Shown here: piece by piece, positions 22,677 to 22,802 of the stretch | Position numbering within the stretch: position 1 is the first letter of the stretch | Layout: every line of letters starts with the position of its first letter | Assembly: GCA_945902745.1 (NCBI GenBank) | Contig: CAMDNE010000001.1 | Location: 124,001 to 188,000 of the forward strand | DNA length: 64,000 nt | DNA from: Chitinophaga pinensis | Lineage (GTDB): Bacteria; Bacteroidota; Bacteroidia; Flavobacteriales_D; Crocinitomicaceae | Reading direction: 5' to 3' | Made by a program: the position numbers and the translations under genes | Notes under the pieces: model-generated | Database searches by the model: none | What the model was told of the DNA's origin: nothing | Seen by the model: the letters and a program-made list of their open reading frames with translations, nothing else

Positions 22677-22802
22677 ATGGAGAAGAAACAGTTTTCAGTT
22701 TACCAAATGACACAAAATCCCAATCAGGAGATTTCAGTTTTTAATTCCTTCATCGGAAACAATTTGATGCGTTGTATGTGCTGTTGCTGCATGTGCTGCT
22801 AA
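22677..22802 (+). CDS. 41-aa Cys/Met-rich small ORF, candidate leader peptide
   Basis: MEKKQFSVYQMTQNPNQEISVFNSFIGNNLMRCMCCCCMCC*; below ORF-track length cutoff. Confidence 0.7.
   Translation: MEKKQFSVYQMTQNPNQEISVFNSFIGNNLMRCMCCCCMCC

What the first reader, a model, noticed from the sequence alone, without database searches (positions are those of the whole stretch)
22677..22802. Unannotated 41-aa ORF ending LMRCMCCCCMCC between SAM riboswitch and metX
The ORF MEKKQFSVYQMTQNPNQEISVFNSFIGNNLMRCMCCCCMCC* has 7 Cys and 2 Met in its last 10 codons. It sits between a SAM-I riboswitch and the methionine genes. Poly-Cys tails occur in mycobacterial Cys-responsive leader peptides (established). By analogy this could be a translation-attenuation sensor of Cys/Met-tRNA charging in series with SAM sensing. 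A metal/sulfur-binding peptide is the alternative. A possible hairpin (attgc-aat-ctga-atac-tcag-ag-gcaat, 22828-22854) plus T-rich tract lies between the ORF and metX.
Basis: partly seen in the sequence, partly recalled or inferred. Interest (0 to 1): 0.88.

Follow-up and report, generated by a model that had tools for sequence, protein, structure and literature searches.

The report
Cysteine-run leader peptide behind SAM riboswitch
Many Bacteroidota bacteria have, between an RNA switch that senses S-adenosylmethionine and the genes that make homocysteine, a tiny gene ending in a run of cysteine codons; it looks like a second sensor that reads the cell's cysteine supply, giving one mRNA leader two sulfur inputs.

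Summary
In detail: a 41-codon ORF at 22677-22802, 8 nt after the P1 helix of a SAM-I riboswitch (22544-22669), ends MRCMCCCCMCC and precedes metX. It is not chance. A model of this riboswitch type found ORFs with at least 3 Cys in the last 12 residues at the same place in 65 of 90 family loci (1.2% after shuffling; 0 of 30 metH-type SAM riboswitches) and in five other families of the class. The tail is 43% Cys and 12.5% Met (rest of the ORF 0.8% and 1.5%), with TGT/TGC exchanging freely. pN/pS is 0.37 in the tail and 1.49 elsewhere: a codon-sensing leader, not a folded micropeptide. Downstream genes are metX, metY or cysH. In direct arrangements metX takes over the leader's start position. The Cys tract pairs with its own downstream RNA better than shuffled or foreign sequence does. 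This genome lacks serine acetyltransferase and CysK and carries CBS and CGL-like genes, so metX probably feeds both Met and Cys. I infer an AND gate: low SAM lets the leader be translated, and low Cys stalls the ribosome and opens metX. Polarity and mechanism are untested, and the window's own downstream RNA gives no significant pairing. I found no published description.

The parts
22506..22513 (+). Putative Bacteroidota promoter -7 element TACATTTG (consensus TAnnTTTG), 30 nt upstream of the aptamer
   Evidence: Sequence; TAnnTTTG lies within 70 nt upstream of the aptamer in 43 of 87 leader loci against 4% after shuffling, mostly at 26-35 nt
22544..22669 (+). SAM-I riboswitch aptamer (RF00162); P1 arms ATTTATA 22545-22551 and TATAAAT 22662-22668
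   Evidence: 66.1 bits; P1 positions read from the sequence and from alignment A1
22677..22802 (+). 41-codon leader ORF (TAA stop included); AUG 8 nt after the 3' end of P1
   Evidence: same place and frame in relatives
22767..22799 (+). Regulatory tail MRCMCCCCMCC: 7 Cys and 3 Met codons before the stop
   Evidence: tail composition and selection
22828..22854 (+). Hairpin between leader and metX, followed by UUCCUUUU; possible part of the expression platform, weak evidence
   Evidence: Present in the fold but not beyond shuffles; no strict terminator
22890..23963 (+). metX, homoserine O-acetyltransferase: first regulated gene
   Evidence: NCBIfam TIGR01392 320 bits
23960..25210 (+). Homoserine dehydrogenase, overlapping metX by 4 nt
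   Evidence: NCBIfam NF004976 335 bits, above cut-off
25215..26127 (+). Two half-size YeeE/TsuA-type (thiosulfate transporter-like) membrane proteins, 25215-25706 and 25708-26127
   Evidence: Weak matches to TsuA NF052577
26584..26997 (+). OsmC-family protein
27009..28181 (+). metZ-type homoserine sulfhydrylase: makes homocysteine from sulfide
   Evidence: NCBIfam PRK08133 519.7 bits against a cut-off of 522

Best explanation
It is the leader-peptide gene of a two-input 5' leader controlling homocysteine synthesis. The SAM-I aptamer comes first. When SAM is bound, P1 forms and covers the A/U-rich ribosome entry region just upstream of the leader's AUG, so the leader is not translated (inferred from position and from direct arrangements). 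When SAM is low, ribosomes translate the leader to its Cys/Met run. With enough charged Cys-tRNA they finish and leave, and the Cys tract is free to pair with RNA further down. With too little they stall on the Cys codons, keep the tract from pairing, and so leave metX (or metY, cysH) expressible. Default is OFF; full ON needs low SAM and low Cys. Shown here: architecture, conservation, amino-acid-level selection on the tail, and coevolving tract-downstream pairing in relatives. Inferred: translation of the ORF, stalling, ON polarity, and whether the last step is translational (favoured for metX types) or transcriptional.
For: Same place and frame in 65 of 90 family loci and in f14, f17, f18, f19 and f20 of the class, 0 of 30 metH-type riboswitches. 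Tail 43.3% Cys against 0.8% elsewhere; 260 TGT and 209 TGC codons; pN/pS 0.37 in the tail, 1.49 in the rest. In a scan of 85,488 species for a CCCCMCC-stop pattern, all six Bacteroidota matches end such a leader behind SAM-I. Downstream genes are metX, metY and cysH with a sulfite-reductase-like gene. In loci without a leader the metX AUG sits about 10 nt after P1, like the leader AUG. Cognate tract-downstream duplexes beat shuffled sequence in 18 of 19 metY and 23 of 31 metX representatives (p=1.6e-4, 2.6e-4) and beat foreign tracts (p=0.004, 0.0002). In metX types, clearing the tract raises predicted start-site accessibility by 0.15 against 0.07 for shuffles. This genome has CBS-like and CGL-like genes but no SAT or CysK, so homocysteine is the likely source of Cys. 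Leaders go with SAT-less genomes, direct metX with SAT (41:12 against 3:9, Fisher p=0.001).
Against: For the window itself the tract-downstream duplex is no better than shuffled (z +0.4), the fold is ordinary and no strict terminator is present. metY types show no tract-start-site pairing, so one mechanism does not fit all. The SAT association is not corrected for phylogeny: direct-metX loci sit in two genera. Some family members have Cys-poor tails (RMRQMA, RACRMA). There is no expression, ribosome-profiling or binding data.
Confidence: 0.72

Rival explanations
1. Codon-sensing leader with the opposite polarity: stalling at Cys codons lowers metX/metY expression (for example by blocking reinitiation or uncoupling transcription so that Rho terminates), sparing sulfide when cysteine is scarce.
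For: Same anatomy and selection data fit; metY start sites look open anyway, and no strict terminator is seen in the window.
Against: Pairing in metX types predicts opening of the start site when a ribosome sits on the tract. cysH is also a target, and homocysteine appears to be the source of cysteine here, so shutting it off on Cys starvation makes little sense.
Confidence: 0.12
2. The Cys/Met-rich nascent chain itself is the sensor: an arrest peptide whose thiols respond in the ribosome exit tunnel to redox state, (per)sulfide or metal rather than to tRNA charging.
For: Met is enriched too (12.5% against 1.5%) and precedes the longest Cys run in 49 of 87 leaders; the run sits at the very C-terminus.
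Against: Run length and spacing vary widely (1 to 8 Cys, interruptions by many residues), and the residues before the run are not conserved, unlike known arrest peptides (from general knowledge). The Met bias may serve RNA pairing (AUGUGU with ACACAU).
Confidence: 0.09
3. A functional Cys-rich micropeptide (metal- or sulfur-binding) co-regulated with methionine synthesis.
For: A Cys-rich tail could bind metal in principle.
Against: The rest of the peptide evolves without constraint (pN/pS 1.49) and differs between genera; no relative was found in 5.8 billion proteins or among NCBI families. The Cys tract also coevolves with downstream RNA.
Confidence: 0.05
4. A chance ORF in an A/T-rich leader.
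For: The window's own downstream RNA is not unusual.
Against: 65 of 90 loci against 1.2% by chance; conservation across six families.
Confidence: 0.01

Closest known systems
Polycysteine-encoding leaderless short ORFs of mycobacteria (Canestrari et al. 2020, cited in PMC9031893)
   Same: Short ORF with a run of Cys codons upstream of the regulated genes; expression set by cysteine-dependent ribosome speed.
   Different: There leaderless; here the ORF starts about 130 nt after the aptamer begins, directly behind a SAM-I riboswitch that presumably gates it. Different phylum, metX/metY/cysH targets, Met mixed into the run. I could not read the primary paper here.
Riboswitch-controlled uORF of M. 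tuberculosis ppe2 (B12 riboswitch, PMC11260477)
   Same: A riboswitch whose first output is translation of a small leader ORF, which in turn controls the main gene.
   Different: That uORF overlaps the main gene (AUGA) and works by reinitiation, with no amino-acid codon run described; here the gap is typically 64-147 nt and the ORF looks like a codon sensor.
uORFC-8-2 motif upstream of cysS in Rhodobacterales (PMC8632094)
   Same: Proposed ribosome-mediated attenuator with Cys codons in a short ORF.
   Different: Two Cys codons inside a stem followed by an intrinsic terminator, no riboswitch, target cysS.
SAM-I (S-box) riboswitch, RF00162
   Same: The aptamer itself is a clear member.
   Different: In the same family the metH copies have no leader ORF, and in some genera metX is controlled directly.

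Membership tests
SAM-I riboswitch (RF00162) | Covariance model score above the gathering threshold | tested here: met
   66.1 bits against 44.4
SAM-I riboswitch (RF00162) | Binds SAM and changes gene expression | not testable with these tools
   Needs in-line probing or reporter assays
Ribosome-mediated (leader peptide) attenuator | Short ORF just upstream of a biosynthetic gene, rich in codons for a related amino acid | tested here: met
   43.3% Cys in the last 12 codons of 87 leaders; metX, metY, cysH downstream
Ribosome-mediated (leader peptide) attenuator | Regulatory codons conserved at amino-acid level while the rest of the peptide drifts | tested here: met
   pN/pS 0.37 in the tail, 1.49 elsewhere; 25 synonymous Cys changes against 15 losses
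Ribosome-mediated (leader peptide) attenuator | Mutually exclusive RNA structures involving the regulatory codons | tested here: inconclusive
   Significant tract-downstream pairing across relatives, but not in the window itself
Ribosome-mediated (leader peptide) attenuator | Response to tRNA charging | not testable with these tools
   Needs Cys-limitation reporter experiments
Intrinsic-terminator transcription attenuator | Strong hairpin followed directly by a U run before the gene | tested here: not met
   none by strict definition in 22300-23000; only a weak hairpin at 22828-22854
Mycobacterial polycysteine leaderless sORF | Poly-Cys run in a short ORF upstream of the regulated genes | tested here: met
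Mycobacterial polycysteine leaderless sORF | Leaderless start (AUG at the transcript 5' end) | tested here: not met
   A 126-nt aptamer and the putative promoter lie upstream of the AUG
Riboswitch-controlled uORF (ppe2 type) | uORF start region lies in the riboswitch expression platform | tested here: inconclusive
   AUG about 9-11 nt after P1 in most loci, same as metX in direct arrangements; SAM dependence of initiation not testable
Riboswitch-controlled uORF (ppe2 type) | Overlap with the main gene and termination-reinitiation | tested here: not met
   Leader stop to metX start is 87 nt here

The most novel reading that the evidence does not exclude
A widespread, undescribed class of composite regulators in Bacteroidota in which the direct output of a riboswitch is not a gene but a codon-sensing leader peptide, so that one mRNA leader computes low SAM AND low cysteine. 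The Cys arm is kept mainly where cysteine must be made from homocysteine and is absent in direct-metX loci where serine acetyltransferase is mostly present.
Probability: 0.62. Interest if true: 0.88.

Novelty: new variant of a known kind. Interest (0 to 1): 0.82.

Why it matters
Riboswitches and leader-peptide attenuators are normally treated as alternative ways to sense an amino-acid pathway. Here the two appear wired in series across many Bacteroidota genera, and the presence of the second sensor follows the topology of sulfur metabolism. If true, many SAM-I riboswitch annotations in this phylum miss half of the control element, an unannotated leader-gene family is explained, and it becomes testable how a two-input RNA gate is gained, lost and retuned in evolution.

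Tried and rejected
Protein homology search with the 41-aa ORF found nothing because the tail is low-complexity and the rest is not conserved; a riboswitch-anchored search (model R1) worked. The best-scoring RF00162 loci turned out to be a different class in front of split metH without a leader; kept as the negative control. An intrinsic terminator was looked for and not found in the window. Consensus folding of ten metY leaders returned no structure because alignment of the intergenic parts fails; duplex tests with shuffled and foreign tracts were used instead. Synonymous re-choice of Cys codons changed pairing little, so codon choice itself is not strongly tuned for pairing. Poly-TGY runs elsewhere in the genome were listed but not shown to be leaders. 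Papers were searched for a SAM riboswitch with a Cys leader and none was found; the library is open-access only, so absence is not proof.

Full report
WHAT IS THERE. It begins at 22677, 8 nt after the 3' arm of P1 (TATAAAT, 22662-22668) of a SAM-I riboswitch (RF00162, 22544-22669, 66.1 bits), ends in MRCMCCCCMCC-stop at 22802, and is followed after 87 nt by metX. A TAnnTTTG promoter element lies 30 nt upstream of the aptamer (22506-22513); such an element occurs within 70 nt in 43 of 87 leader loci against 4% after shuffling. The genes that follow are metX, homoserine dehydrogenase, two half-size TsuA/YeeE-like membrane proteins, an OsmC protein and a MetZ-type sulfhydrylase.

IS IT REAL. Direct protein search finds only the closest relatives. 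A DNA pattern scan of 85,488 species for CCCCMCC-stop gave eight matches; the six in Bacteroidota all end a short ORF placed directly behind a SAM-I riboswitch. I then built a covariance model from ten such aptamers plus start codon (R1) and searched 200 genomes of the family and 398 of the phylum, fetching the loci. In the family, 65 of 90 R1-type loci have an ORF starting at the same place with at least 3 Cys among the last 12 residues; shuffling the downstream DNA gives 1.2%, and none of 30 metH-type SAM riboswitches from the same family has one. Leaders also occur in families f14, f17, f18, f19 and f20 of the class. Examples of tails: MHCMCCCCMCC, MCCMCCCCMCW, CCCCMCCCCMCC, GCICMCCCCC, QPCCICICCPCCC, RMCCCC.

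WHAT IS SELECTED. Over 87 leaders the last 12 residues are 43.3% Cys and 12.5% Met; the rest of the peptide is 0.8% and 1.5%. TGT (260) and TGC (209) are used freely. In 31 related pairs pN/pS is 0.37 in the tail and 1.49 in the remainder. This is what a codon-sensing leader predicts and a folded or metal-binding peptide does not. Between this genome and its nearest relative the tail differs by three synonymous Cys changes and one Arg/His change.

WHAT THE SAM APTAMER CONTROLS. The leader AUG mostly lies 9-11 nt after P1. In 13 loci, from two genera, there is no leader and metX itself starts there, about 10 nt after P1 in most. I infer that P1 formation controls initiation at whatever start codon follows, the leader's or metX's. 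Blocking the P1 5' arm raises predicted accessibility of the leader start region in this window from 0.55 to 0.70, a modest and purely computational effect.

WHAT THE CYS TRACT DOES. In 50 non-redundant loci the Cys tract pairs with its own downstream RNA better than with dinucleotide-shuffled RNA (metY 18 of 19, p=1.6e-4; metX 23 of 31, p=2.6e-4), and the downstream RNA prefers its own tract to tracts of other loci (p=0.004 and 0.0002). In metX types part of this pairing involves the metX start region (9.3 pairs against 5.6 in shuffles), and removing the tract, as a ribosome on it would, opens the start region by 0.15 against 0.07. In one genus (g11, e.g. L249, L253) AAUGUGUUGU of the Met-Cys-Cys codons faces ACAACACAUU just before the metX AUG. 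metY types lack start-site pairing; there the last Cys codons and stop pair with an element before a hairpin carrying a conserved GGGCCC loop (read by eye). The window itself shows neither clearly (duplex z +0.4, fold z -0.12, no strict terminator). The last step of the mechanism is therefore open and may differ between lineages.

WHY CYSTEINE. The genome has a CBS-like gene (478 bits against TIGR01137, below its cut-off of 510) and a cystathionine gamma-lyase/synthase-like gene. Among PALP proteins it has only threonine deaminase, this CBS-like protein and one weak match, no CysK, and it has no serine acetyltransferase-grade hit (best E 2e-8). Homocysteine made by MetX and MetZ is then the probable source of both methionine and cysteine, and sensing both end products at metX makes sense. 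Across the family leaders occur mainly in SAT-less genomes (41 of 53) and direct metX mainly in SAT-bearing ones (9 of 12; Fisher p=0.001). This is not corrected for shared ancestry and uses a score gap (above 150 bits) rather than the curated cut-off. Elsewhere in the class the same arrangement stands before cysH with a sulfite-reductase-like gene (L085) or cysH (L111).

MECHANISM. Best reading: SAM bound, no leader translation, tract free, OFF. SAM low and Cys sufficient: ribosome passes, tract re-pairs, low to intermediate. SAM low and Cys-tRNA uncharged: ribosome stalls on the tract, downstream RNA open, ON. That SAM overrides is sensible, because excess methionine can itself be turned into cysteine through SAH, CBS and CGL (general knowledge). 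Shown: anatomy, conservation, selection, pairing statistics. Inferred: translation, stalling, polarity. Rivals are opposite polarity, a nascent-chain (thiol) sensor and a functional micropeptide.

COMPARISON. It works like the polycysteine short ORFs of mycobacteria (cited in PMC9031893), but it is not leaderless. It resembles the riboswitch-gated uORF of M. tuberculosis ppe2 (PMC11260477), but without overlap and with a codon run. The Rhodobacterales uORFC-8-2 motif before cysS (PMC8632094) uses two Cys codons and a terminator. A flavobacterial transcriptome paper mentions leader-peptide attenuation for amino-acid operons in general, without describing this (PMC9723704). I found no paper describing SAM-I plus a Cys leader in the open-access library. 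Verdict: a real, widespread and apparently undescribed combination of two known kinds of sensor.

Noticed in passing
window 26135-26560 and 22329-22447: A repeat with about 74-nt period, five copies in the operon before the OsmC gene (26135-26560), and one 119-nt copy 87% identical just upstream of the riboswitch (22329-22447). Possibly a mobile or REP-like element.
   Followed up: no
L240, L241, L244, L245, L251, L252: Genus g2: SAM-I riboswitch followed by a tiny leader MKKRMCCCC(Y/EK or AN) in front of a Glu/Leu/Trp-dehydrogenase-like gene, which is not an obvious sulfur gene.
   Followed up: partly
L174, L177, L181, L188, L191, L197, L214, L218, L227, L235: Between Cys leader and metY a hairpin with a conserved GGGCC(C) loop, found in many genera; function unknown.
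   Followed up: partly
window 22528-22542: Small hairpin TCCACAATCGGTGGA between promoter and aptamer; similar CAC-AAnCGG-GTG hairpins precede the aptamer in relatives (L010-L014, L073).
   Followed up: no
L011/L179 (G099): SAM riboswitch and Cys leader run straight into a C-terminal metZ fragment without metX; rearrangement or relic.
   Followed up: no
L107, L117, L140, L127 (genomes G454, G550, G763): Genomes of family f20 carry 3 to 5 SAM-I riboswitches, several with Cys-bearing short ORFs, in front of a SusC/TonB receptor, an ATP-grasp-like gene and metY.
   Followed up: partly
window 25215-26127: Thiosulfate-transporter-like protein (TsuA/YeeE) encoded as two half-size genes inside the methionine operon.
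   Followed up: no
window 18712-18779 and 17573-17605, minus strand: DUF805 and DUF805b RNA motifs.
   Followed up: no
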